Assembly: GCA_027563935.2 (NCBI GenBank)
Contig: CM050453.2
Coordinates: 88,262,665 to 88,326,664 of the forward strand
DNA length: 64,000 nt
Direction: 5' to 3'
DNA from: Costus lasius
Taxonomy: Eukaryota > Streptophyta > Magnoliopsida > Zingiberales > Costaceae
Shown: piece by piece, positions 4,524 to 64,000 of the stretch
How the letters are laid out: each line of letters starts with the position of its first letter
Numbering within the stretch: the first letter of the stretch is position 1
Position numbers and translations under genes: made by a program
Notes under the pieces: model-generated
What the model was told of the DNA's origin: nothing
What the model saw: only the letters and a program-made list of their open reading frames with translations
Databases searched by the model: none

Positions 4524-5230
4524 ATGGCCGGTATAGGTGGATCTATGCAGTCCAATCCTTGTGGTTTCCAGAGTTCAGTCATAATTTTTACCGGAGAAAA
4601 TTATGATTTCGGGAAAATCAAGATGAGAACCATTCTCCAATCACAAGGATTATGGTCTATCGTAATGGAAGGCTACGATGCCTGTGAAGATGAAAGCCGT
4701 CTGTTCGTGGAGGAAAAAGAGAAATTAGAAATGAAGCGCATGAAGGATGCTCGTGTGTTACGTATTATTCAACAAGCAATATCTAAATTTTTTTTTTAAG
4801 GATTATGGCGGCAGAAACATCAAAGGATACATGAGATATTCTACAACAAAAATTTGAAGGAAATCACAAGGTACACAATATTAAACTTCAATCTTTTCGA
4901 AGAGAATTAGAAATATTAAAAATAAAAGAAGGAGAGCAAACGAAGGACTTTTTTAGCAAAATAATGGACATAGTTAATCATATGAGGGCGCTTGGTGAAA
5001 ATATTTCTGATAAGAGAATAGTTGAAAAATTTTGATCAATCTTCCAGAAAAATTTGATTATATAGTTGCTGCGAAGAATCCAAAGATATTTCAAAATTAT
5101 TTGTCCAAGAATTAATGAGTTCTTTATTATCTCATGAACAAAGAAAATTACGGCATTCTGAGTCATCTATAGAAAGTGCTTTTCAATCTAAAGTAAGTCT
5201 TAGGTCTCAAAAGAATAAGGGCATTGCAGA
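4524..5230 (+). pseudogene. copia gag (broken)
   Basis: The frame opens with an ATG shortly after the primer site. It reads as a plant copia Gag N-terminus: FTGENYDFGKIKMRTIL near residue 28, then a QSQGLW motif. It is broken by a slip in the T-run at about 4788-4797 (stop at 4797), by TGA in place of a likely Trp codon near 4832, and by a further frame change near 5030. The remaining frames keep helical Gag text (for example FFSKIMDIVNHMRALG) up to the next frame. It cannot make a full Gag. Confidence 0.75.
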
Positions 5231-7860: not shown

Positions 7861-8337
7861 AAGCAGTGCCTGTCTGAGTTCCTCCTTTGTAATCACAGGG
7901 TTATGACAATGTGAACTACAGCAGTCACACCCCTATGATGACAGTGAAGTGACAATTTTTATTTCACCTTTTTGATTTATAAACTCTTTTCATCATTAAT
8001 TACCCTTTGATTTTTTTAATGACTTACTAGCATCTTTACTTGTCAATTATTTAAATAATATTAATTTTACTTTTGTGATTTATTGGCTTTGTGATTGTCA
8101 AATTTTAAATAATTGCATGTCCTAGGGTATATAACATGAACCGAGAGGTGACTTATAAACCTGGATCCCTTTAATTAGCACTAGTAACCTAGACTACGAG
8201 AATAGTTATGTTCTAGAAATCTAATTATTGATGTCAATCTTACATGTAGTTACTATAATTTGACAATTACATTGTGTAAGACAAGATAACTACATTGTAA
8301 AGTGAGTTAAATTGTTAGGACTCTTTAGGTAAAACTT

Positions 8338-8420
8338 GTAAAATTAAAATACGAGAGTGCTTAATTTTACTTAAGAGAAGAACTTAAGAATTAAGCCACG
8401 AAAGTGAATCTTGATTCTTA
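8338..8420 (+). other. Two stem-loops with CACGAAAGTG/ACGAGAGT heads (family A LTR)
   Basis: First: GTAAAATTAA (8338-8347) pairs perfectly with TTAATTTTAC (8361-8370) around ACGAGAGT. Second: TAAGAATTAAG (8385-8395) pairs with CTTGATTCTTA (8410-8420), 11 pairs with one G-U, around CACGAAAGTG. The loops GAGA and GAAA fit GNRA tetraloops. The same positions in the minus-strand family A LTRs have changed bases that still pair (14323-14356). Confidence 0.65.
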
Positions 8421-8496
8421 GAAACTAAAATTACCCTAGGTCGAATCACTAAAATAGCAAGTCATGAGATTGAAGGTTGAGTTAGTGTAAGTTGGG

Positions 8497-9984
8497 TGAT
8501 ACGTCCGCAAGTGTATAGATTTATTGAAGTAATAAAATAAGATATCGTTCCCAATGAGGATCAGGTGGTCAAGTACCGATTACACGGTCGATCTATATCT
8601 AGACAAATTAAATTTGTGGTTTTTTTGTTGGAAACTTCTAAGTACAAATAAAAAGAAACAGATATTGCGTTTTGGGTAAAAATCAATTCGGATGAAATTA
8701 GGATTTGGGGTTTCACCACACTGATGATTATGAATTTAATAAAAATAAATCTTTGAACATAAAATTATAGTTTTGAAATGGATTTTTCCTAAGGTACAGA
8801 TTACCTCCTCCCGAAGCGTAATCCGGTCTCTAATTACGTTAATTCCCTACTCTCGTGACAATTAACGCAATTAGATCCTTTAAGTTCTATGAAAAATCAT
8901 GTAAATCCTTCAAACGAATCCAAACTACTCCCGTGATTGGATTCGTAGGTTTGACAAGAATAAATCCGACGTCACGATTCACCTTCCGGTCCTTCTCGCG
9001 ACATCTCAAACGCAATAAAACTTGTCTAGAGAATTAAAGCGGGATACATACAATTCTAATCAAATCAATTAAATAATATTCTTAACAAAGATTCATGCAA
9101 ACGATGCAAATCATAAATCAATCAACAGGCTACTTCTCAAATCCCGAAATAAGGTTTACACGTTCATGTTCAAAGCAAATAGCATGTTCATCGATGAAAA
9201 TTACATGAAAACCCTAGAAGATTACAGGAAATCGCTAGACAAGATACTAGAAAGGCTTCCCCTCAATCTCGAGACAAAGATGAACCCTCTAATTCTTCCT
9301 TTGCGCGGCTTTCCTATTCGAATTCTGCCCTGGAATTGATTTCCGCCATCACCGCCGCCGCTGTTAGTTTTCGTTCATAGAAGTCCCCTTTACCCTCGAA
9401 AAATCTGATCTTTTATAGCTTAACCGGTCCAGAACCCATCAAGGAGTGTTTCTGCAAAGTTTGTTTCAAATCCAGTTCGAATCGGGAAAGAATCGAGTGA
9501 AAAACTCGTCGGGCAGGCGTTTTCACGGTCCGTAACATGTTCACGGCCACGACCGTGAAAGTCTCTATGTGTGCAGCTCCTTGTACACAGAAAGTTTCAT
9601 GGTTCCTGATGGATTCACGGCTTCACCCGTGAAAGTTTTTGTGCATTCCCATACTTAGCCATTCTTCGTCCTCTACTCGAACGCAAAATTACGGCCAGCT
9701 TCATAATTATGGCCATAACCGTAAATATCGAATCTTTCACCATTTTCGCTCTAAATTTTGATGTGTAAGCTTGTGATCTCCTTGGGAATCGTGCTATGGC
9801 TTCAAAACTCGTGAAATCCATCATTTTCGTGCGTTTTTACTTGTATTTTCAATAAAACCAAGAAAAGTGAAGATTCTGTGCCAAGTGAAGTAAAAAAATA
9901 CCAAATTTAGCACAAAATTATGGAATTAAGCCTAAAATATAGTGTAAAATATAGGCAAAAATGTGGTGTAAATACAACACATCA
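8497..9984 (-). mobile_element. Solo LTR, Athila/Tat-like, nested
   Basis: 1488 bp with ends TGATACGTCC and CAACACATCA (TGAT...ATCA), flanked by the 5-bp duplication TTGGG at 8492-8496 and 9985-9989. Read on the minus strand it ends in the shared TATACACTTGCGGAC block. It has TTCACGG/CCGTGAA palindromes at about 9520-9640 and three GNRA-type stem-loops at 8799-8946. No internal region is present, so it is a solo LTR produced by LTR-LTR recombination. It is younger than the family A LTR it sits in. Confidence 0.9.
8799..8946 (-). other. Three stem-loops in the solo LTR
   Basis: On the minus strand, stem 8831-8844 with 8860-8873 has 13 of 14 positions paired around GTCACGAGAGTAGGG. Stem 8914-8923 with 8937-8946 has ten perfect pairs around TCACGGGAGTAGT. 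Stem 8799-8804 with 8818-8823 encloses CGGGAGG. The heads resemble those of the other LTR families and the stems do not. Confidence 0.65.
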
Positions 9985-14205: not shown

Positions 14206-15553
14206 ATGGCAATTATACTAAAATAAAAGTTGTCTCCTCTCGAACGTCCAACTTATACTAATTCAACCTTCACTCTCATGATATGCTGTTTCAGTGTTTT
14301 AGACAATGGCAATTATAAACATCAAGAACTAAGATCACTCTCGTGGTTCAATTCTTAAGTCTATCTCCCGAGTACAATTAAGTACTCTTGTAGTTTAATT
14401 TCACAGGTTTTACCTACGGAGTTCTAACAATCTATTTCACTTTTCAATGCAATTATCTTGTTGAACACAATGAAATTGTTAAATTACAATAATTATATGT
14501 AAAATATGCATCAATAATTAGATTTCTAAGACTTAGCTACTCTCGTAGTCTAGGTTTCTAGGTCTAATTAAAGGGGTCTCGATTTATAAGTCACCTCTCA
14601 GTCCATGTTATAAACACTAAAACATGTAAGCATTTAGAATTTGATAATTACAAGGTAAATAAATCTCATAGGCAAAATTAATAATCATTGAATAACTAAC
14701 AAGTAGATGTTTATTTAGACATTATGAAAATTAAAGGGATTACTCCTTATAGTCCCAAAAAGAGGTTTACGCTATCATAGTTTTAAAAATATAGAAACTA
14801 TTCATTAAGAGAAGAATCAGAATTTAAAAAATCAAAATAAAAAATTTTACTATCGTCACAGAGGTCGTCACTGTGACGATAGTAGTACAATCCATCACAT
14901 CCCTATGATTATGAACTTAATAGAGAACTGGCTACCTTCGCAAAGGTTGCTGTAGCTGATTCCAATTTTCTTTGATTTCTTCTTATCGTGATGTCCTTTC
15001 TTCCTGAAAATTTCTATGTGCGATCTCTTGCTTGACATGTGACTTCCTTGAAAATTTCATCATCAGAGATAGTCTAAATGCCTCTCAGCGAGAAATGGAA
15101 CCCTAGTGTCGCCGCCCTTGATTTATCTTTTCAATCGGTCCTGTGCTTCTAGTTTTTCCAATTGCACCTCGAATTTTTCTAATTTGGCATCGGAAGAATT
15201 GGAATAGAAGGCACGCAAAGGAATCGGGCTCACGGTTGTTTTTCCGTAATTCTTGTAATTATACCCTTGTGATGCCCGTAGTTCATTTCGTCATAGGTGT
15301 GTGATGGCTGATTTTTTTCCCAAATTGCCCTCTGGGCTCCAAGTTTCATCATGATTTCATTTTTGGCCTTTTCATCGTTCAAAACCTATGAAATTAAGAC
15401 TTTTTCCTAAAAAATTTGAAAAAAAAAAATAAAAGAGGTATAAATTCTGAAATAATTAACTGAATTTAAATAAAAAACAAGAAAAATTAAGATAAAGATG
15501 ACTTAAAAAGACTACTCAAGTATATAAAATAACTATGACTTTTTGAGTCATCA
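14206..15553 (-). repeat. 3' LTR of element A (outer end lost)
   Basis: Matches 20000-21123 plus 28279-28526 of the other LTR. The inner end is TTGAGTCATCA. It carries CACAG/CTGTG-type paired palindromes at 14855-14925 and 15255-15300, and GNRA-type stem-loops at 14323-14356 (CACGAGAGTG head, nine pairs including two G-U), 14375-14400 and about 14530. Confidence 0.8.
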
Positions 15554-17432: not shown

Positions 17433-19084
17433 TAAAAGGAATATTTATGTAATGCTTTTTCAAAACATTTAAGAATTTCTCAAATTGTTTATCTAATTTT
17501 TCTTGAACAAGTCTCTTGGGAAAGGGTATGAGAGGCCTATATGGAGCTGGTGAACTAGGTCTAGGAGCAATAGGCTGGCACGGCTCATCACAACCCCATG
17601 ATGGCTCGTCACACCCTTGTGACAGTGAGCAAGGTGGGGGTTGCATAAGAGCTGGTGGTGTCTCTAAAGCTAGCTCACTTCTAGGTTCAGTATTAGGTTC
17701 TTCCTCATAACTATCTTGAAGTCCACCCTTGAGTTAATCTAATTATTTTCCACTTTGGGTAGTTATAACATTATAGTGCTCTCTAGGGTTTAGCACGAGT
17801 TTGGCATGTAATTTTCTTGGGGCTCTATAAGATGTGCTGGCTTATTGTGCTATTTGGATTTCTAACATCCAGTTATGTGTAAACATGGTTTCTACCTTAG
17901 AATAGAGTTGATTGATGGTGCCCCCTTGCTACCGAATCACCCTCTTAAGGTTTTCAAATCCCTTGCTTTGATTTGCCATGAATTTTTCTATCATGGATTC
18001 TGAACTAGGTTTTTGGGGTTGATTTTGGTTAAATTGCCTTTGCTGATACCCTCTGTTTTCTACCTGTCCCCTTGTATTATTTTTCCACGACAAATTTGGA
18101 TGCTTCCTCCATTTAGGGTTATATGTGCTAGAGTATGGGTCATTGGTTTTGCTTTGATTGTACCCACTTACAACATTAGCTTATTAAAAACCCAGTTCAA
18201 CAATTACTATGCAATTGTCAGAACTATGCCCCTGATTTCCACAAATATCACAAACAATAAATGATGAAGCCATAACAATTTGCATGTTAAAAGAGTCTAG
18301 TTTATTTGTCAAAGAATCTACCTTTTTGGTGAGAGCACGCCAAGCGTCATTCTCATTCTTAACTTGCGGTCAGTACATAACCCCTCACTCGATGGTCCAT
18401 TGGTTGTGGTTCAAAGACATTTCCTCTATCAAAGTATAAGCATCATCAATGCTCTTATTCAAAAGAGCTCCACTTACAACAGCATCAACAATGAGGCGAG
18501 TACTATAAAGAAGACCATTATAAAAAAAAATATGAAATAAGACCCATTTTTCTAAGCCATGGTGAGCACACTTCCATTGTAATTCATTGAAATGCTCTCA
18601 TGCCTCACTCAGTGACTCGCCATCCCCCTATGCAAAGTTTGTGATCTAGTTTCTCAGCTGGATTGTTTTGCTCGGTGAAAAATATTTAGACAGGAAAGCA
18701 TGTGAGATCTGATCCCATGTAGTAAACGTTCCTAATGGTTGGGATTGTAGCCAAGACTGTGCATAATCCCTGAGGAAAAAAAGGAAATAATCTTAGTTTC
18801 AAAGCATCACTAGATATACCATTTATCTTAATGGCGTCACAATATTCAAGAAAAAGAGAAAGATGTTGGTTAGGATCTTCGAGTGGGGATCCTCCAAACT
18901 GATTTTGTTGTATCATGGATAGCAAAGCTAGCTTAATTTGAAAATTATTAGCCTCAATCGTCCGCCTAGCTATGCTAGAGTAAACTCTTTGTGGATTCAG
19001 TGTTGCATAATCTCTAAGTGATCTCCTACCTTCCATGGTTGGTTCTTCTTCTTTTCTTTCTTTGTACTTGAGTTTCCTACGCAA
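17433..19084 (-). pseudogene. Element A gag
   Basis: The frame at 19084-18686 includes QRVYSSIARRTIEANNFQIK and NQHLSLFLEYCDAIKINGIS, the retrotransposon Gag core of Athila/Tat elements. The next segments are broken by stops but continue with ALLNKSIDDAYTLIEEMS (about 18460) and a CCHC knuckle CDICGNQGHSSDNC at 18211-18252. A proline-rich tail (PPPCSLSQGCDEPS) leads towards protease at 17646-17500. Nucleocapsid function is lost because of the breaks. Confidence 0.8.
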
Positions 19085-19740: not shown

Positions 19741-21123
19741 TGATATGTCTGCAAGTGCATAGATTTGTTGAAGTAATAAAATAGATGTCGACCCCACAGA
19801 GACCTATGTGCTAAGTACCAAATAACTATATTATAACTAGCTAAGCAAACGATCTATAATGGAAAGAATAAAATAAAGAACAATTAAGCGAGAATAGTTG
19901 TCGAAAATCAGAAGGAGAAAACTGGAACCAAGGTTTCATCACTTTAATTTTCATGACTAAACATAGTAAAATTTCTTGTTAGTTACTCAAATCATGTTAA
20001 GGAATAAATTACCAAAATAAAAGTTGTCTCCACTCGGATGTCCAACTTATACTAATTCAACCTTCACTCTCATGACTTGTTGTTTTAGTATTTTAGACGA
20101 TGGTAATTATAGACATCAAGAACTAAGATCAATCTTGTGGTTCAATTTTTAAGTCTATCTCCCAAGTAAAATTAAGTACTCTCGTAGTTTATTCTCACAG
20201 GTTTTACCTAAGGGGTTCTAACAATCTAATTTACTTTTTAGTGCAATTATCTTGTCTAACACAATGCAATTGTTAAATTAAAATAATTATATGTAAAATA
20301 TGAATCAATAATTAGATTTCTAGGACTTAGCTACTCTCGTAGTCTAGGTTTCTTGGTCTAATTAAAGGGGTCCAGATTTATAAGTCACCTCTCGGTCCAT
20401 GTTATAAACCCTAAAACATGCAAGTATTTAGAATTTGACAATTACAAAGTAAATAAATCTCATAGGCAAAATTAATAATCAATGAATAACTAACAAGTAG
20501 ATCTTTAATCTAGTCATTATGAAAATTAAAGGGATTACTCCCCATAGTCACAAAAAGAGGTTAACACTATCATAGTTTTAAAAATACAGAAGCTATTCTT
20601 TAAGAGAAGAATCAGAATTATAAAAATCGAAAAAAAAAAAAAATTTACTGTCATCACAGGGTTGAGATGGTCTTAGTACAATCTATCAAAGCCCTATGAT
20701 TATGAACTTGACTAGAGAACAGGCCGCCTTCGTGAGGGTTACTATAGCCTTTTCTGATTTTCTTTGATTTCTCCCTATCATGATCTCCTTTCTTCCTAAA
20801 AATTTCTATGCATGATATCCTCCTTGATATGCGTCTTCCCTGAAAATTTTGTCACTGAAGATGGTATCTACACCTCTCGGCGAGAAACGGAACCCTAGGG
20901 TCGCCGCCTTTGATTTCTCCTTCATTTATTGATGAAAAATCGTGATACTTCAATTGAATCCTCTCCTTTGTTTTATAATCTGTCTTGTGCTTCTAGTTTT
21001 TCCAATTATGCCTTGGATTTTTCAAATTTTGTGTCAGAAGAATCAAAACTGGAGGGCTATTTTTTTCCTAATTTTTGTAATCTCACCCGTGTGATGCACA
21101 TAGTTCATTTCGTCATAGGGGTG

Positions 21124-35315: not shown

Positions 35316-35569
35316 TGATGACACCAAAATATATAGTATATTTTGTATCATTTTAGATATCTTTTCATGCTAAATTGAGGATCTTATTACTTGTTTTCAT
35401 GCTAAATTCATCGAATATTGCAAAGTCTACTTCTATTTTGGTTTTTCACTATTTTCAGATAAAAAGGCATTATTTCAAGGAGTTTTCAAGCAAAATCAAA
35501 CACATAGAAGAGTTACCATCATAAAGAGGAGATCACCCAAGAAATTTTACGCAAAACGGAGCAACTCAG

Positions 35570-35945
35570 CAAATTACGGCAGTGCCGTAACCTATTTTAC
35601 GGTACCGTATTTTCATACGTTACCGTAAAATCTGAGCCACTGCCGTATTTTGAGGAGTTTCCGAACAGAAGGTTTTTCGGATTTTACGGCAGTACCGTAA
35701 ACCCTATTACGGTACCGTATTTCAGAGCGCTTCAGAACAGAAACTTTGCTTGATTTTACGGCACCGCCGTAAAGGATTACACGGGCCGTATTTTTCAGTT
35801 ACTTCCGACCAAAGAGTTCAGCCGATTTTACAGCAGTACCGTAAACCAGATTACGGTGCCGTATTGCCTAGACAACATAAGACCAGAAAATTTGACCGAT
35901 TTTACGGCAGTGCCATAAACTATTACACTGCTGTATTTCTGTTGT
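35570..35945 (+). repeat. Paired-palindrome array, family E
   Basis: About five units of roughly 75-85 bp. Each has a TTACGGCAGTACCGTAA-type palindrome, 5-8 bases, then a TTACGGTACCGTA-type palindrome, followed by text like CTTCAGAACAGAAACTTTG. Confidence 0.8.
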
Positions 35946-36747
35946 TAAACGCGATTTGCAGGTCAATTCTGAAGTCCGATTCTTGCGGAGACGATTGCGG
36001 GCGAACTAGAGGTTTATATTCGAAGCCGTAAGAAGCAATAGGGGAGTTTTTGACAAGAGGATTACAGACACACCAAAAGCCCTAATTTTCATCAACTGTC
36101 GGGGGAGAAATCGTCATTCACGCCACCACCTAGGGTTCCGCCGCCGCGACCAATCCAGACCACCTCCGGCCGCGATTTTCATACTGAAGCTTCGTCTGGA
36201 AGAGGAGACAACATGCCAGAAGTTTCAGAAGAGAAGGAGATCAATTGGAAGAGGAATCGAGGAAAGAAGAAGGACAGCCACTGTTCACCGAGAGCTTTTG
36301 AAATTACGGCTGTGAAATACTTCACAGCCGTCCTGTATTTTCGCAAAACTCTTCTTTTACTGATTTTTGAACTTCTAAAATTATGGAATATTGTATTTTC
36401 TCCACCATGCTAGCTTAAACTACTTTTGGGATATGGGGGAGTAATTCACTTGATTTCTAATGACTAGATGACTATTTTTTTTTTCACTATTTCGTTGCGT
36501 TTAATCTTAGCATGATGATTTTGCTCATGCGATATTTGTGCTTAGACTCTCTATAGATCCATGTTACTAATCATGTTTTTAGAATTTTCGCTATTGACTG
36601 AAAGGTAATTGCTTGAGAATTCAGAACCCTAGAATTGCATGTTAGGAACCCTTCCTTAGGTTAGATCCAATTTGTTCAATTCTAGTAGATTAATTGCCAT
36701 GATAATAACATGAATCTATAGATCGAGTCTAATTATCAAACGTGGAA

Positions 36748-36990
36748 ATCTTGCACGAAAGTGAGGATCGGAACGTTGGAGATCCATGAGTAAAACTAGT
36801 GTTGAAGCTCGGATGCACGAAAGTGATCCTTGAGATTCCACTAGAGATTATCAACCTAGAATTCGGATGCACGAAAGTGATCCTTGAGTTCATTGATTGA
36901 TGATTTACTTATCTTCAGCGTTGGGATGAATCTTGCGTGAAAGCGAAGATTAATCCCTGCAGGGTTGTTTGCACTAGAGTGAAACAATCC
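36748..36990 (+). other. Five consecutive GNRA-type stem-loops, family E LTR
   Basis: Heads are CAC-GAAA-GTG (36754-36763, 36816-36825, 36870-36879), CGT-GAAA-GCG (36936-36945) and CAC-TAGA-GTG (36972-36981), each preceded by a bulged G. Outer stems differ: ATCTT/AGGAT; GGAT/ATCC; AATTC+GGAT/ATCC+GAGTT; GGGAT+AATCTT/AAGATT+ATCCC; GGTTGTTT/AAACAA(T)CC. In the fourth both sides of the inner stem changed together (CAC/GTG to CGU/GCG). Confidence 0.7.
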
Positions 36991-37394
36991 TTTTATTAAG
37001 TAATTTGCATCTTCATCATGATAAAATTAAACTGACGAATTCTTTATTCATTTCTAGTCATAGAAATTATAGTGAATGAAACCCTAGTCCCAGTTTTCTC
37101 TCCGACAATATTCTTCCGTGTGTTTGCGATATTTGCTTGACTTTCATTCGACTACCTAGATGGTAAGAAATCAATTGATCAGTACTTGACAACATAGGTC
37201 TCTGTGGGTTCGATATCTTTCTTTATTACTTCGAGTATCCGTGCACTTGCGGACACTACGAGTTAGGGACAACAAGTTTTTGGAGCCGTGCCAGAGAGTG
37301 ACAGTAGCCCTGTACGCCAATACCTTTGGCCACGACCCCTGAAACGAGTCTACCTGTTTGTATTTAAAAGTGTGTCCTTTCGGATCACAACAGA

Positions 37395-56089: not shown

Positions 56090-57140
56090 GTGAAGTTAAA
56101 ATTGAATTTTAAAGGGATCGTCGGAGTCATGGAAGCCAATGGGTGTGACCCAATTCCCTTAGGAGTCACTTGTGAAGCTTCTACAGAGCCTCAGGAAGAG
56201 CCCCACAAATTTTTAGCCCAAACAGGGGTTTATGCAGCCCAAACAGAGCTTCCTGCTAGTTTTCCTACCAAAATTACAGCCTATGAAAAATATTATACCC
56301 CCGGTGTAAAAGCCTCTGCCCAAGAACTGGCTGAAATTATAGTTTGTGAAAAACATTACACCCCTGGTGTAAACTGCCTAGTATGCCCAAAACCTTATGC
56401 TAGTTTTTCAGCCGAAATTAAAGTCTGTGAAAAATATTACACCCCCGGTATAAAATGCCTAGTGTGCCGATACACTTGAAAGATGTTGTGAAGAAGGAAG
56501 TGCTTAAACTATTGGATGCTGGAGTCATATATCCAATATCAGACAGTTCTTGGGTAAGTCCGGTTCATGTCGTTCCCAAGAAGGGAGGTGTCACCGTGAT
56601 TAAGACTGATGCAGATGAATTGATACCGATGCGCACGGTTACATGATACAGGATGTGCATTGATTACAGGAAGTTGAATTCTGCTACACGAAAAAACCAC
56701 TTCCCTCTACCATTTATTAATCAGATGTTGGATAGATTAGCTCATAATTTTTTACTTTTGTTTTCTGGATGGTTTCTCATGTTTCTTTCAAATTCCCATC
56801 CATCCAGAAGATCAGGAGAAAACAACATTTACATGTTCCTATGACACCTATGCATATAGGAGAATGCCGTTTGGTCTCTGCAATGCCCCTACAACATTCC
56901 AACAAGCAATGATGACCATATTATCTGATTTTAATGAAGACTTTATGGATATATTTATGAATGATTTTTCTATATACGTTTCCTCTTTTCATCATTGTTT
57001 GTCTAATTTATTCAAGGTTTTGCAGAGATGTGAAGAGGTGAATCTAGTTTTGAACTGGGAGAAGTGTCATTTCATGGTCAAGGAAGGTGTTGTCCTTAGT
57101 TATCTAGTTTCTGAGCGAGGGATAGAGGTGGATAAACTTG
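56090..57140 (+). pseudogene. Athila/Tat-like RT fragment with repeat-coded leader
   Basis: A 129-codon frame (56090-56479) ends in three repeats of a (V/A)(C/Y)EKYYTPG(V/I)K type, coded by TTACACCCC(T/C)GGTGTAA-like palindromes. It runs directly into RT text: PIHLKDVVKKEVLKLLDAGV, SWVSPVHVVPKKGG, then [20 protein letters not shown] and MPFGLCNAPTTFQQAM. The catalytic box reads FMNDFS where F-x-D-D is expected (first Asp to Asn). GIEVDKL ends the match near 57140. Frame shifts near 56460, 56650 and 56760. The palindrome repeats lie immediately before RT, a coding position, unlike the LTR arrays. Confidence 0.75.
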
Positions 57141-57218
57141 TTGTATCCCAACGAGGAGCTAGACAAAAACTTATCTCTAGCGTTGCCACCAAAGACTTGT
57201 TGTGTCCAAAAACTTGTT

Positions 57219-58915
57219 GTGTCTGCAAGTGCACGGATACTCGAAGTAATAAAAAATATCGATCCCACAGAGACCTACGTGTTAAGTACCAAATAGTTGT
57301 ATTCTTACTAGCTAAGCAATAGAATATGATGCACGTAACAATAGAAAGAACACGAAATCAGAGAGAAACATAGGACTAGGGTTTCATCCACCTTAATTTT
57401 AATGGCTAGATATGAATAAAAGGTCGTCAATCTAATTTCATTATGATAAAGATCTAATTTACTTCATAAAAGGATTGCCTCACTTTCGTGCAAACAACCA
57501 TGCAGGGACCAATCATCGCTTTCGCACAAGATCTATCCCAACGTTGAAAATAAGTAAATCATCAAACAAAGAACTCAAGGATCACTTTCGTGCATCCGAA
57601 TTCTAAGTTGATTATCTCAAGTGGAATCTCAAGGATCACTTTCGTGCATCCGAGTCTCAACACAAGTTCTACTTATGATTTTTCAACGTTCCGATCCTTG
57701 CTTTCGCACAAGATCTTACCATTTGACAAAATAACTCAATCCTAGATTCTTTTTATTAAACATGACAATTATTATTCTAAAATCAAGAAATAAGAATTAA
57801 CCTAATTTCTTACAGTGAGTTCCTATTATTCAATTTTAGGGTTCCAAATTCTCAAGCAAGTCATTTTTCAGTCTATTGCGAAAACTCTAGAATCATGCAT
57901 GATAATAAGAAAACAATGGAGAATCATAGAGCAATCTATCACATAAGTAGAATTATCATAATAAAGCTATTCTGACGAAAATAAAAATTATCTAGTTATA
58001 AGAAATCAAAGTGAATTACTCTCCCATGTCCCAAAATATGATTAAGCTATCATGGAAGAGAAAATACAATCAACCATAGTATCAATGTGTCAGAAATCAA
58101 AGAAGAAGGAGAAATAACGTTAAAACACGGCTGTAATGGAAATTACAGCCATAATTTTAGTTGAAAACTCTCTGTGAACAGTGCCCGCGACCCTTCTTTC
58201 GTTGATTTCTCCTCCAATCGAGATCCTTTCGCTCTGAAACTTCTGTGAAGTCCTCCCCTCCTCTAGGCGAAGCTTCAGTGTAAAATTCATGGTCTGAGGT
58301 GACTTCCACGCCTCTAAGTGCGCGGCCGAACCCTAGAGACGCCTCCCTTGATTGCTCACCGAATAGTACATAAAAATTGGCTTTTGGTCCCTTTATCTTC
58401 TCCTCGTTGAGATGAGTCTGTATCTTCTTTCGGATCTCAATTTGGTGCCCTAAGCCTCAAGATATCGTCTTTTTAATTTTGCGGCGGAAAACTTGAGTAA
58501 ACTAGGTCAAATTATTATACCGTAAAAATAATTATGGGGGTGCCGTAATTTCTGAAAAATCTTCTATATGGAAATCACCCAAAATACGGTAGTGCTCCAA
58601 AATTACGGTAGTACTCAAAAAATACGATACAGTAATTATAATTACGGCACTGCCGTAATTTGGTAAGTGGCTTCGATTTACGTGAAATTTGTCCTGTAAT
58701 CTCTTCTTGATGATGAGAATTCTTATATGTATCTGATTTTGCTTGAAAACGCTTTAAAATCGTAACTTTTTATCTGAAAATCATTAAAAAGTAAAATAGA
58801 AGTATATTCTATAATATTTAATAAAAAAAGCGTAAAAATAAGTAAAGTAGTATAAATATAACACAAAAAGACTAATGAAATGATACAAAATACACTATAA
58901 ATTTTGGTGTCATCA
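57219..58915 (-). repeat. Family E LTR with adjacent primer site
   Basis: 1697 bp with the inner end TGTGTCTGCAAGTGCACGG on the left and TTTTGGTGTCATCA on the right. To the left the minus strand reads ACAAGTTTTTGG and then TCTTTGGTGGCAACGCTAGA, so it is a 5' LTR with a short leader scrap (57141-57218). The scrap abuts a plus-strand RT fragment, so the rest of its element is lost. Stem-loops with CACGAAAGTG heads lie at about 57480-57720. Confidence 0.8.
58505..58665 (-). repeat. Paired-palindrome array, shortened
   Basis: A reduced family E array with AATTACGGCACTGCCGTAATT (58641-58661) and decayed copies such as AAATACGGTAGTGCTCC. Confidence 0.7.
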
Positions 58916-61320: not shown

Positions 61321-63148
61321 TGATAGGATTCTGCAAGTGCACAGAATTATCGAAGTAATAAAAATATCGATCCACAGAGACCTTATTGTTAATTACCAAA
61401 TAATTATTTTCTCGCTAGCTAAGTAAACCAAATATGATGCAAATAAGTAATAGAAATAACGCTAAAGATAATCAGAGAGGTAAACATGGGACTAGGGTTT
61501 TATCCACCTTAATTTCAATGATTAGATATAATAAAAGGTCATCAATCAAATCTTGTTAAGATAAAGACCTAATTTACTTGATAAAGGTATTGTCTCATTT
61601 TCGTGCAGACTACCATGCAGAAAATCGATCCTCACTTTCGTGCAAGATCTATTTTCAATGCTATAGATAAGTAAATCATCAATCAAAGATCACAAGGATC
61701 ACTTTCGGGCATCCAGATTCTAATTTGATTGATAGTCTCAAGTGGAATCTCAGGGATCACTTTCGTGCATCCGAGACTCAACACAGGTTCTACCTATGGT
61801 TTTCCAACATCTACTAGAACAGATCAAGTTGGATCTAACCTAAGGAAGAGATCCTTAAATGCAATTCTAGGATTCCAAGCTCTCAAGCAAATCACCTTTC
61901 AGTCTCATTGCGAAAACTTTAAAACATGGATAATACCATAGATCTATGGAAAATTAAAGACAAGACATTCACATAAGTAAAATTATCACAACGAAGATTA
62001 TCATGACGAAATAAAAAGTTATCTAATCATTAAAAATCAAAGGGATTACACCCCATGTCCCAAAATAGTATTAAGCTTGCATGAAGGAGAAGATACAATA
62101 AATCATAGTCTTAGAGTGATCAGAAAACAAAAAGAAAGGAGAAACAACGTTACAACACGGTTGTAAAATCCTTTACATCCGTAATTTGCTTCGATGAACA
62201 GCACTATCACCGCTGTTTCGTTGATTCCTCCTCTGATCGGACTCCAAATGCTTTGAAACTTCTGTGGTCTCTTCCTCTCCTCCAGGCGAAGCTTCTGCGT
62301 GAAAATCACAGCCTAAGGTGCCCTCTACGCCTCTCGGCACGAGAACAAACCCTAGCAGCCTCTCTGGCGATTGCTCCTTTGATACTGGATAAAAGTTCCT
62401 TCTTTCAGTGCATGTGTCTTCCCCTCTTAAAGACAAAGTAGCAACAACTTTTGGATCTCGATTTGGAGCTATGGATCAAAAGTTATGGCTCACGCAAGAT
62501 TCGGACTCGTAAAAATCGCGTTTTTGACTGGGAATTACGGAAGTGTAATATCTCACGGCATTGCCGTAAAATAGCTTGAGTGTTCTGTTCTAGAAATGCT
62601 GGAAAATACGGCGCGTAATTTGGTTTATGGCAGTGCCGTAATTTCGGTTGAACTTTCTGGTCGGAATATGTCTGGAAAATACGGCCCGTGTAGAAGTTTA
62701 CGGTAGTGCCGTAATTTCAGCAAAGGTTTCTGTTCTGAAAACGCTCCAAAATACGGCAGTGTAATTCTTTACGGCAGTGCCGTAAAATCACAAAATCTTT
62801 CTGTTTGGAAAAGCTCCAAAATCGGCCGTGTTCTTGATAATACGATAGCCTAAAAATACGGTACCGTAAAATCCTTTACGGTACCGCCGTATTTTGGTTC
62901 CTGGCCTCGATTTGCATGAAATTTCTTGTGTATCTTCCTCTTGATGATGGTAATTCTTCCATGTGTTTGATTTTGCTTGAAAAAGCCCAAAATAGTGCAT
63001 TTTTGCCTGAAAATCATGAAAAACCAAAATAGGAGTAGACTTTGCAATATTCGATGAATTTAGCATGAAAACAAGCAAAAGATCTTCAATTTAGCATGAA
63101 AAGATATCTAAAATGATACAAAATATACTACATATTTTGGTGTCATCA
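61321..63148 (-). mobile_element. Family E solo LTR
   Basis: 1828 bp, ends TGATAGGATTCTGCAAG and GGTGTCATCA, flanked by GAGTT at 61316-61320 and 63149-63153. It matches 35316-37271 in inverse orientation. No internal sequence. It carries a palindrome array at 62525-62895 and CACTTTCGTGC stem-loops at about 61595-61770. Confidence 0.9.
62525..62895 (-). repeat. Paired-palindrome array, family E
   Basis: About five units in the inverse sense, with TTTACGGCAGTGCCGTAAA (62770-62788), TTTACGGTAGTGCCGTAA and TACGGTACCGTAAAATCC. Spacers match CTTTCTGTTCTGAAAACGCT-type text. Confidence 0.8.
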
Positions 63149-63310
63149 GAGTTCATTCTGATTCTAAGTCCAAGACAGATTCATGTTTGAATTTGAGTCC
63201 AATTGGGATTCATGGGTTTATGTATATCCTGGTCAAGTTTGTGCTCTGTATGGGAGTTTAACTTGGACTTGGGACTATAAACCATGTTGGATTCAAATCC
63301 TAATTTAATT

Positions 63311-63598
63311 AGGAGTTGGAATCCTAATCCTATTAGGAATTGGAATCCTAATCCAACTAGGAGTTGGAATCCTAATTTTATTAGGAGTTGGAATCCTAAT
63401 CCTATTAGGAATTGGAATCCTAATCCAACTAGGAGTTGGAATCCTAATCCAACTAGGAGTTGGAATCCTATTTTTATTAGGAGTTGGAATCCTAATCCTA
63501 TTAGGAATTGGAATCCTAATCCAACTAGGAGTTGGAATCATAGTCCTATTAGGAGTTGGAATCCTAATTCTACTAGGAGTGAGAATCCTAATCCAATT
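63311..63598 (+). repeat. 24-bp minisatellite inside the copia LTR
   Basis: Twelve units of 24 bp (AGGA(G/A)TTGGAATCCTAAT plus a variable CCTATT, CCAACT or TTTATT end). Variant order repeats as a higher-order block (CCTATT, CCAACT, TTTATT-like). Units contain the palindrome CCTAATCCTATTAGG. Because 24 is a multiple of three, long open frames arise on both strands; they are not genes. Confidence 0.9.
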
Positions 63599-64000
63599 AG
63601 GATTCAAATCCTAATAAGAATTTGGTTATGGATATGACCCATGGTGGTTGGGCGCAAATCCTACTCCAACTAGGATTCAAATCCTAATGAGAATTGGATT
63701 TGAATAAGGCCCATTGTGTTGGGCACAAATCCTAATCTAATAAGGATTTAATTCCATGGGCCTAATTAGTGTTGAAATCCAAATCCAATTAGGGATTGTG
63801 GATTAAATCTAATTGAGTCAAGCTTGGAATCCTAATGGGAGTAGGATTTATCATTGGCGAATGGCTTAATTCCATAAATGGAATTTGCGCTAATTGATGG
63901 TATGAATCCTAATGGAATTAGGTTTCCATTGTTGGAAATAATCTTGGATGTGTGGGCTGATATGTTGGCGAGTATGGTATGATTTATTCAAGCTAAAATT

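What the first reader, a model, noticed from the sequence alone, without database searches (positions are those of the whole stretch)
36748..36990. A series of five GNRA-capped stem-loops with a constant head and changing stems in a family E LTR
Five hairpins follow one another in about 240 bp. The head is G(bulge)-CAC-GAAA-GTG in three, CGT-GAAA-GCG in one, and CAC-TAGA-GTG in one. The outer stems share no sequence but all pair, up to 11 outer pairs (36923-36957). In the CGU/GCG hairpin both sides of the inner stem differ from CAC/GTG, which keeps pairing (U-G allowed). In the minus-strand copy near 57480-57515 the fifth hairpin has a GAAA loop and its stem changes are G-U tolerant. Constant loop plus variable but paired stems suggests selection on RNA shape, perhaps protein binding, dimerisation, packaging or translation control of the retrotransposon RNA. 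I know of no named element of this kind.
Basis: partly seen in the sequence, partly recalled or inferred. Interest (0 to 1): 0.86.

Follow-up and report, generated by a model that had tools for sequence, protein, structure and literature searches.

The report
GNRA hairpin array in plant retrotransposons
A large group of plant jumping genes carries, in most of the copies sampled here, a row of RNA hairpins with the same kind of loop but changing, still-pairing stems just ahead of the site where DNA copying starts, which points to an undescribed working RNA structure, perhaps the tag by which the element packs its own RNA.

Summary
The hairpins are real. Window copy A (LTR about 35316-37274) has the five described, a sixth (H0, near 36600) and a 12-bp stem enclosing H2 and H3. 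Copies in the same 1.28-Gb genome form three subfamilies with matched changes on both sides of stems: a structure predicted from copy A alone has 94 double-changed cells, against 9-27 when partners are slid. Hairpins of similar build with other stems occur in the window's diverged LTR families D and F and in further families. Upstream of 60 primer-binding sites taken in list order, 57 carry at least one GNRA hairpin at -8.5 kcal/mol: 135 sense, 3 antisense, about 6.5 expected from shuffles. The one-strand excess points to RNA, not a DNA palindrome. The first hairpin keeps a near-constant head over very different paired stems. A TATA box shared by 10 of 11 family F copies suggests that the array lies in the transcribed leader. 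Against: no structural pair passes a phylogeny-aware single-pair test. No Rfam match; ten paper searches showed no description. Function is unproven; my best guess is multivalent Gag/genomic-RNA recognition (packaging).

The parts
35316..37274 (+). LTR copy A of family E, subfamily E1 (starts TGATGACACC, ends ACAACA before a degenerate primer-binding site at about 37275-37300)
36582..36622 (+). H0: sixth hairpin upstream of the reported five, head G-ACT-GAAA-GGT; counterpart of the first hairpin of families D, F, G, H
36748..36768 (+). H1: G bulge, CAC-GAAA-GTG, outer ATCTT/AGGAT; inner pairs become TGC/GCA in subfamily E2
36772..36783 (+). 5' side of the 12-bp stem that encloses the H2 and H3 arms
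36799..36841 (+). H2 arm: CTC-GGAT-G-CAC-GAAA-GTG-ATCC-TT-GAG
36859..36891 (+). H3 arm, near-duplicate of H2
36911..36922 (+). 3' side of the 12-bp enclosing stem
36923..36957 (+). H4: 11 outer pairs, CGT-GAAA-GCG; distal stem GGGA/TCCC becomes GAAA/TTTC in subfamily E3
36961..36991 (+). H5: CAC-TAGA-GTG in this copy; GAGA in 5 of 8 E1 copies, GAAA in most E2 and E3 copies aligned
57215..58915 (-). LTR copy B of family E (subfamily E2), hairpins between about 57477 and 57724
61330..63148 (-). LTR copy C of family E (subfamily E3), 3' end cut; H1 deleted in this copy
20050..20412 (-). Family D LTR, hairpins d1-d5 with GAGA-type loops (other D copies at 8003-8495 plus and 14216-15130 minus)
8790..9005 (-). 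Family F LTR, hairpins f1 (9005-8968), f2 (about 8946-8914), f3 (8874-8830), f4 (about 8828-8790), GNRA loops
9411..9417 (-). TATA box of family F LTR (CTATAAAAG), present in 10 of 11 other copies looked at; would place f1-f4 in the transcript leader

Best explanation
SHOWN by comparison: LTRs of a large group of Ty3/Gypsy-type elements in this (by inference plant) genome, those with the primer-binding site TGGCGCCGTTGCCGGGGA, mostly carry an array of one to six sense-strand RNA hairpins, mainly 240-640 nt upstream of that site. Each is capped by a GNRA loop (GAGA, GAAA or GGGA) on 3 bp, then a bulge or small internal loop typical of its place (a single G in family E; GAAGG/GAA-like in the first hairpin of other families; GC/G-like in the last), then an outer stem that varies in sequence but stays paired. 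INFERRED: from the TATA box of family F and the position before the primer-binding site, the array lies in the leader (R/U5) of the genomic RNA. INFERRED, my commitment: the heads are repeated docking sites by which the element's own Gag (or a nucleocapsid-like zinc knuckle) recognises the genomic RNA in many contacts and packs it, unpaired G/A of bulge and loop being read and stems serving as spacers, much as retroviral packaging signals present exposed guanosines. I put the RNA-structure part at about 0.93 and the packaging role at about 0.42; the score below is for the whole.
For: Shape: z -5.1, -3.7, -3.0. Arm swaps between hairpins: E own -12.0, swapped -5.8 kcal/mol (14 hairpins); D -7.6 and -4.0 (15); E, D, F together own -14.0, swapped -5.9 (17 hairpins, 260 swaps). 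Structure of copy A alone tested on 32 E1/E2/E3 copies: 89.3% of cells paired (36.9-46.3% slid; 87.1% shuffled), 94 double-changed cells (9-27 slid; 37.7 shuffled), score 0.140 (0.035-0.069 slid; 0.106 shuffled). Subfamily majorities, 91 pairs: 68 invariant, 9 double, 9 one-sided still paired, 5 broken. First hairpin, 14 rows from families D-H, rows mostly pre-chosen for at least 6 outer pairs: 94.1% paired (27-38% slid), 7 of 8 outer pairs changed on both sides, score 0.633 (0.085-0.162 slid); without that choice, 44 of 59 instances have 7 or 8 of 8 outer pairs, arm swaps 20%. Sites in list order: 20 sites, 45 sense hairpins, 1 antisense, shuffles 3.5 (max 8), 19 of 20 with one or more; 40 further sites at the same cut-off, 90 sense, 2 antisense, shuffles 3.0 (max 8), 38 of 40. 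Controls of 974 nt: 30 segments downstream 10 sense/11 antisense; 30 upstream 10/8. Primer site: 4879 exact, 0 for the reversed pattern. TATA box 10 of 11. Function by analogy: PMC7599994 (passages) says that guanosines held exposed or weakly paired were essential for NC binding and packaging in HIV-1; PMC7395439 (abstract and outline) describes more than two dozen NC sites in one leader. Several E2-type copies (L163, L170, L173, L178, L181) encode a CX2CX4HX4C knuckle within about 0.5 kb after the primer site.
Against: No experiment bears on function. Single structural pairs are not significant in the phylogeny-aware test: D, one pair at E 0.01, not structural; E1+E2 plus window C, none at E<=1; E1-E3, best 1.11, not structural; first hairpin, best 0.91 and 0.65. 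In one search pairs with a change on both sides number 12, no more than the simulated null (mean 14.6); only the paired fraction stands out (0.968 against 0.826, maximum 0.882 of 200), on a structure fitted to the same data. In some searches two of the five measures do not exceed the column shuffles (pairs with a double change 10 and 9.2, 7 and 6.1; further pair types 48 and 55.7, 15 and 16.6). Within E2 stem and non-stem columns change at the same rate, 0.033 and 0.032: most copies look dead. Three of 60 sites have no hairpin by my cut-off (L221, L262, L267). Hairpins with other four-base loops are common too (of 155 in the 20 sites: GNRA 45, UNCG 4, other 106). The knuckle reached no Pfam cut-off. 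A bulged G is not universal outside family E. [quoted passage not shown]
Confidence: 0.42

Rival explanations
1. The array is a structural scaffold: GNRA loops dock into receptors elsewhere in the leader (or in a second RNA), folding or dimerising the genomic RNA, with no protein reading the heads.
For: GNRA loops are general tertiary-contact modules (recalled); the 12-bp stem makes a multi-arm domain in family E; loop identity drifts within the GNRA class (where only GNRA loops were sought: GAGA 61, GAAA 16, GGGA 12, GCGA 1).
Against: No receptor motif was sought; the bulge below the loop is not needed for docking, and GAAA, GAGA and GGGA would not all suit one receptor (both recalled).
Confidence: 0.2
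2. The array controls translation of the element's RNA (ribosome shunting, internal entry, or cap-independent initiation across a long structured leader).
For: Several stable hairpins upstream of the first open frames. PMC5902531 (start of abstract in the listing) says that pararetroviral leaders with uORFs and secondary structure control initiation.
Against: Shunt structures are typically one long stem with an uORF before it (recalled); here repeated small heads are kept. uORFs were not analysed.
Confidence: 0.15
3. The heads bind a host RNA-binding protein for nuclear export, stability or RNP location, like constitutive transport elements.
For: Repeated similar heads on free stems suit multivalent protein binding as well as Gag does.
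Against: Nothing specific; the heads differ by family, as might be expected if the partner coevolves with the element rather than being a fixed host protein (inference).
Confidence: 0.15
4. DNA-level palindromes: arrays of transcription-factor or recombination sites that happen to fold.
For: Antisense folds are also more stable than shuffles (z -3.9, -3.2, -2.0), as an inverted repeat gives; CAC...GTG resembles an E-box-like half site (recalled).
Against: A DNA palindrome has no reason to prefer one strand for the loop: sense GNRA 135, antisense 3 at 60 sites; sense TYNC 2. G-U cells 482, A-C 58 (fitted structure); derived single changes in E2 73 G-U, 43 A-C. Outer stems differ between families.
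Confidence: 0.03
5. Chance plus descent: ordinary AT-rich LTR sequence with a tandem duplication, no selection on structure.
For: H2/H3 look like a duplication; no structural pair passes the phylogeny-aware test; within-subfamily substitution rates are equal in and out of stems; the families share descent, so sites are not independent.
Against: Families with other stems keep a similar build at a similar place; shuffles give 3.5 and 3.0 where 45 and 90 are seen.
Confidence: 0.03

Closest known systems
Retroviral packaging signals (HIV-1 psi; PMC7599994 passages, PMC7395439 abstract and outline)
   Same: Several hairpins in the 5' leader near the primer-binding site, exposed G, small purine-rich tetraloops; one HIV-1 leader segment forms GNRA-type tetraloops as an oligonucleotide (PMC7599994 passage)
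   Different: Here up to six heads of similar build within about 400 nt inside the LTR, upstream of the primer-binding site; stems differ between families; Gag binding untested
Ty3 genomic RNA structure of yeast (PMC11381356, passages)
   Same: Same superfamily by name (Ty3/Gypsy), structured leader; sequences for packaging 'not precisely defined'
   Different: The words GNRA and tetraloop do not occur in the main text held; Ty3's 5' UTR is 193 nt and its primer is tRNAiMet
BARE of barley (PMC3735527, passages)
   Same: Plant LTR retrotransposon with a distinct RNA pool for packaging; the paper mentions conserved dimerisation and packaging signals in BARE2
   Different: Copia superfamily (recalled); no such array in the passages seen
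Sirevirus LTR repeat motifs (PMC2829016, start of abstract in the listing)
   Same: Conserved motifs in non-coding regions of plant LTR elements
   Different: Copia; as I recall it, a CGG-CCG DNA motif, not an RNA hairpin series (not read here)
Cassandra, Helenus, Ajax (PMC10886601, passages)
   Same: RNA-like sequence inside LTRs
   Different: Derived from 5S rRNA or tRNA genes; no Rfam match in our leaders
Coat-protein operators such as the MS2 hairpin (recalled)
   Same: Bulged purine a few pairs below a tetraloop as a protein-binding head
   Different: Single operator, A bulge, phage; analogy only

Membership tests
Plant Ty3/Gypsy elements of the Athila/Tat kind | Primer-binding site TGGCGCCGTTGCCGGGGA after the LTR end (tRNA-Asp type, and its tie to Athila/Tat, are recalled) | tested here: met
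   seen in some E2, D and F copies and at 4879 places; subfamily E1 has a changed site
Plant Ty3/Gypsy elements of the Athila/Tat kind | Reverse transcriptase/integrase that groups with Athila or Tat | not tested
   only about the first 1.1 kb of internal DNA was held; the window RT piece at 56741-57322 (RVT_1) is not shown to belong to these LTRs
Conserved structural RNA element | Pairs kept through changes on both sides, beyond slid and shuffled controls | tested here: met
   cells with double changes and score exceed slid and shuffled controls; the count of pairs with a double change exceeds the slid but not the shuffled control
Conserved structural RNA element | Single pairs significant in a phylogeny-aware covariation test | tested here: not met
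Conserved structural RNA element | Strand preference (RNA, not DNA palindrome) | tested here: met
   135 sense, 3 antisense at 60 sites
Known Rfam family | Match at the gathering score | tested here: not met
   window: only snoR71 at 18554; 11 loci: none
Retroelement packaging signal | Located in the genomic RNA leader | tested here: inconclusive
   TATA box in family F and place upstream of the primer-binding site; none shared in E or D; no transcript data
Retroelement packaging signal | Needed for Gag binding and packaging | not testable with these tools
   needs bench work

The most novel reading that the evidence does not exclude
A lineage-wide, undescribed RNA domain of plant Ty3/Gypsy elements: a modular string of bulge-plus-GNRA heads on freely evolving stems, probably in thousands of copies, acting as a multivalent genome-packaging code that coevolves with each family's Gag. 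As far as my searches went, it would be the first packaging signal of a plant Gypsy element defined by structure.
Probability: 0.35. Interest if true: 0.88.

Novelty: new variant of a known kind. Interest (0 to 1): 0.74.

Why it matters
[quoted passage not shown] A structure-defined array gives a concrete piece of RNA to probe, a sequence-independent way to find leaders of this group, and a test of whether Gag and leader coevolve.

Tried and rejected
DNA palindrome, chance and duplication-only readings: see rivals. Small-RNA-gene or ribozyme origin: no Rfam match. Scans of viral contigs: two exact patterns gave 0; a looser one gave 120 stretches and stopped at its limit (80 listed), which I took for chance matches in phage DNA and did not study. 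Literature: ten answered searches showed no such array in the titles and abstract starts listed; most subscription papers are not held. The local z scan is a weak detector here. The first alignment of family D mixed orientations and is void; redone. Pfam on two E2 leader ORF pieces and one D piece: nothing above cut-off. TATA search in E and D: no box shared by many copies at the expected place, so the leader claim rests on F. Pattern search AGGACYGRRAGGTGAA did not complete. Choices to know: the -8.5 kcal/mol cut-off was set on the first 20 sites and kept for the next 40; A7 took 13 of the 18 rows, which had been kept for at least 6 outer pairs, plus L232; one search took 17 hairpins, not every hairpin of E1 and E2.

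Full report
WHAT IS THERE. The region lies in an LTR of about 1.96 kb (35316-37274, plus strand), one of three family E copies in the window (B 57215-58915 minus, C 61330-63148 minus). Each has a bulged G on the 5' side, three pairs and a four-base loop. H2 and H3 are near-duplicates and H1 and H4 share part of their stem, so 'no shared sequence' is too strong. A sixth hairpin, H0, sits upstream (about 36582-36622), and a 12-bp stem encloses H2 and H3. That the host is a plant is inferred from the snoRNA and the kind of elements.

MORE THAN CHANCE. Copy A folds at z -5.1 (0 of 200 shuffles as low), B -3.7, C -3.0; antisense -3.9, -3.2, -2.0. The strict head-plus-stem build occurs 11 times in the window, 10 in sense in the E copies; shuffles average 1.2, maximum 5 of 40. 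When the 3' arm is swapped between hairpins the mean energy goes from -12.0 to -5.8 kcal/mol in E (14 hairpins) and from -7.6 to -4.0 in D (15); C-H3, D2-d1 and D3-d4 do little or no better than swaps.

COPIES IN THE GENOME. The window lies on contig C8 of a 1.279-Gb assembly. The hairpin stretch of copy A gave 5040 first-look candidates, of B 4899, of C 4547, overlapping to an unknown degree; 40 were scored in each. I call the groups E1, E2 and E3. C lacks H1 by its own deletion; the 12 relatives fetched have the stretch.

COVARIATION. I folded copy A alone and tested that structure (99 pairs) on 32 copies (8 E1, 12 of the 30 E2 held, 12 E3): 89.3% of cells pair (36.9-46.3% slid, 87.1% shuffled), 94 cells are changed on both sides (9-27 slid, 37.7 shuffled), score 0.140 (0.035-0.069 slid, 0.106 shuffled). 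Two measures do not exceed the shuffles: pairs with any double change, 10 (3-7 slid, 9.2 shuffled), and further pair types, 48 (55.7 shuffled). Examples: H1 inner CAC/GTG in E1 and E3, TGC/GCA in E2; H4 distal GGGA/TCCC in E1 and E2, GAAA/TTTC in E3. Among subfamily majorities, of 91 consensus-fold pairs 68 do not differ, 9 change on both sides, 9 on one side still paired, 5 break. Against this, a phylogeny-aware null (simulated substitutions along a FastTree tree, my own script) gives no significant structural pair in E1+E2, E1-E3, D (the one pair at 0.01 is not structural) or the first hairpin; and the number of pairs with a double change, 12, is no more than the null's 14.6, while the paired fraction, 0.968, exceeds the null's maximum of 0.882. 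I read this as lack of power: within E2 stem and non-stem columns change alike (0.033 and 0.032), so most variation is decay after insertion, and only the few masters carry selection.

OTHER FAMILIES. Family D (three copies in the window; 30 aligned) has five hairpins; the consensus fold draws d1, d2, d4 and d5 with the expected heads and d3 with a shifted loop. Family F (minus strand, LTR end at 8503) has four: f1 with about ten outer pairs, f2, f3 with about fifteen, f4. Across E, D and F, 17 hairpins have own arms at -14.0 and swapped arms at -5.9 kcal/mol (260 swaps; I named the heads by hand and took one copy per subfamily; E3 H3 and H4 are equalled or beaten by 3 of 16 and 4 of 14 swaps; D's d3 and d5 are missing).

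A SAMPLE NOT CHOSEN BY HAIRPIN. The junction AGTTTTTGGCGCCGTTGCCGGGGA occurs 4879 times, its reversed control 0 times. I took the first 20 places listed (974 nt each) and then the next 40 (411 nt each; one overlapping junction was skipped). GNRA hairpins at -8.5 kcal/mol or lower: 45 sense, 1 antisense, shuffles 3.5 (max 8 of 40), 19 of 20 sites with at least one, 15 of 20 with two; then 90 sense, 2 antisense, shuffles 3.0 (max 8 of 40), 38 of 40, 31 of 40 with two. Sense loops of the complementary class TYNC: 1 and 1. Controls of 30 segments: 10/11 downstream, 10/8 upstream. In the 20 sites other loop classes gave 110 more hairpins at that cut-off, so GNRA hairpins are not the only ones. Sites in one family are not independent: the 40 fall into ten clusters, nine with hairpins. 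All 60 sites lie on contig C1 below 22.3 Mb. Loops in the second set: GAGA 61, GAAA 16, GGGA 12, GCGA 1. A DNA palindrome would not favour one strand.

THE FIRST HAIRPIN. Its head, about G-ACY-GRRA-GGU-GA with a 4-5/3 internal loop, is near-constant; outer stems include CGTTGCGA/TCGCAACG (F), TGTTACGA/TCGTAACA (H), TGTCAAGG/CCTTGACC (G), GTTTATAA/TTATAAAC (D) and GCAA/TTGC (E). Fourteen rows, mostly pre-chosen for pairing: 94.1% paired (27-38% slid, 76.6% shuffled), 7 of 8 outer pairs changed on both sides (6.1 shuffled), 35 double-changed cells (0-8 slid, 12.6 shuffled), score 0.633 (0.085-0.162 slid, 0.294 shuffled). Of 59 instances found by head alone, with the internal-loop length chosen for best pairing in each, 44 have 7 or 8 of 8 outer pairs, 11 have 6 and 4 have 5; arm swaps under the same choice reach 7 or 8 in 20%.

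WHERE IN THE ELEMENT. The last hairpin found lies some 240-355 nt before the primer-binding site in most sites. A TATA box (ACTATAAAAGG-like) is present in 10 of 11 family F copies; shuffles carry it in 4%. If it is used, with a start about 30 nt downstream, f1-f4 lie roughly 380-600 nt into the RNA. E and D show no such shared box.

MECHANISM. Shown: an RNA-shape constraint on the sense strand. Inferred: leader location. Inferred and uncertain: repeated heads with unpaired purines suit many weak contacts by one protein; the element's Gag is the natural partner, by analogy with retroviral packaging (PMC7599994 passages; PMC7395439 abstract and outline). Several E2-type copies encode a CX2CX4HX4C knuckle soon after the primer site, below Pfam cut-offs. 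Scaffold, translation and host-protein roles are not excluded; and in HIV-1 changing one psi loop did not significantly affect packaging (PMC7599994 passage).

KNOWN OR NOT. No Rfam family. Ten searches of open papers did not show it (listed in Tried and rejected); PMC3601003 (abstract and passages) built no model for plant Gypsy LTRs. I file it as a new variant of a known kind: a structured leader element of an LTR retroelement, with an unusual modular build.

On re-reading the calls I mended coordinates, the d3 statement, the selection behind A7, the shuffle results that do not stand out, and the list of knuckle copies; the scores did not need to change.

Noticed in passing
window 35557-35938 and 58570-58690 (minus): U3 of family E holds tandem, partly palindromic repeats with ACGGCAGTGCCGTAATT-like words; lowest fold z of LTR A (z -7.7).
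   Followed up: partly
L163, L165, L167, L170, L173, L178, L181 (E2) and L158 (D), first kb after the primer site: An open frame like MSFNHYSWATERGEV..., with a CX2CX4HX4C knuckle intact in L163, L170, L173, L178, L181 and L158 and broken in L165 and L167, follows the primer site, while L125 (E1) and L133 (D) have a different gag-like frame (LRDYAAPNPQ...EANNFEIK); perhaps an extra ORF before gag.
   Followed up: partly
L121-L128, and window 37275-37300: The 8 subfamily E1 copies held have a changed primer-binding site (TTTTTGGAGCCGTGCCAGGGAG-like; similar in L162 and L172 of E2), although the top 40 are 96% or more identical to the window copy in the hairpin stretch.
   Followed up: no
L159, L164, L168, L176, L180, L188 just after the LTR end: Primer-site-like stretch (AACAAGTTTTTGG...) repeated two or more times after the LTR.
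   Followed up: no
window 36428-36447 and about 20538 (minus): GGGACATGGGGAGTAATCCC-like block shared by families D and E upstream of the array; it can form a GUAA-capped hairpin.
   Followed up: no
window 18554-18660: Plant snoRNA snoR71 (Rfam RF00097, 45.5 bits).
   Followed up: no
window 63260-63755: Degenerate tandem repeat of about 72 bp, open in several frames.
   Followed up: no
L221, L262, L267: Leaders with the standard primer site but no GNRA hairpin by my cut-off; a possible contrast set for function.
   Followed up: no
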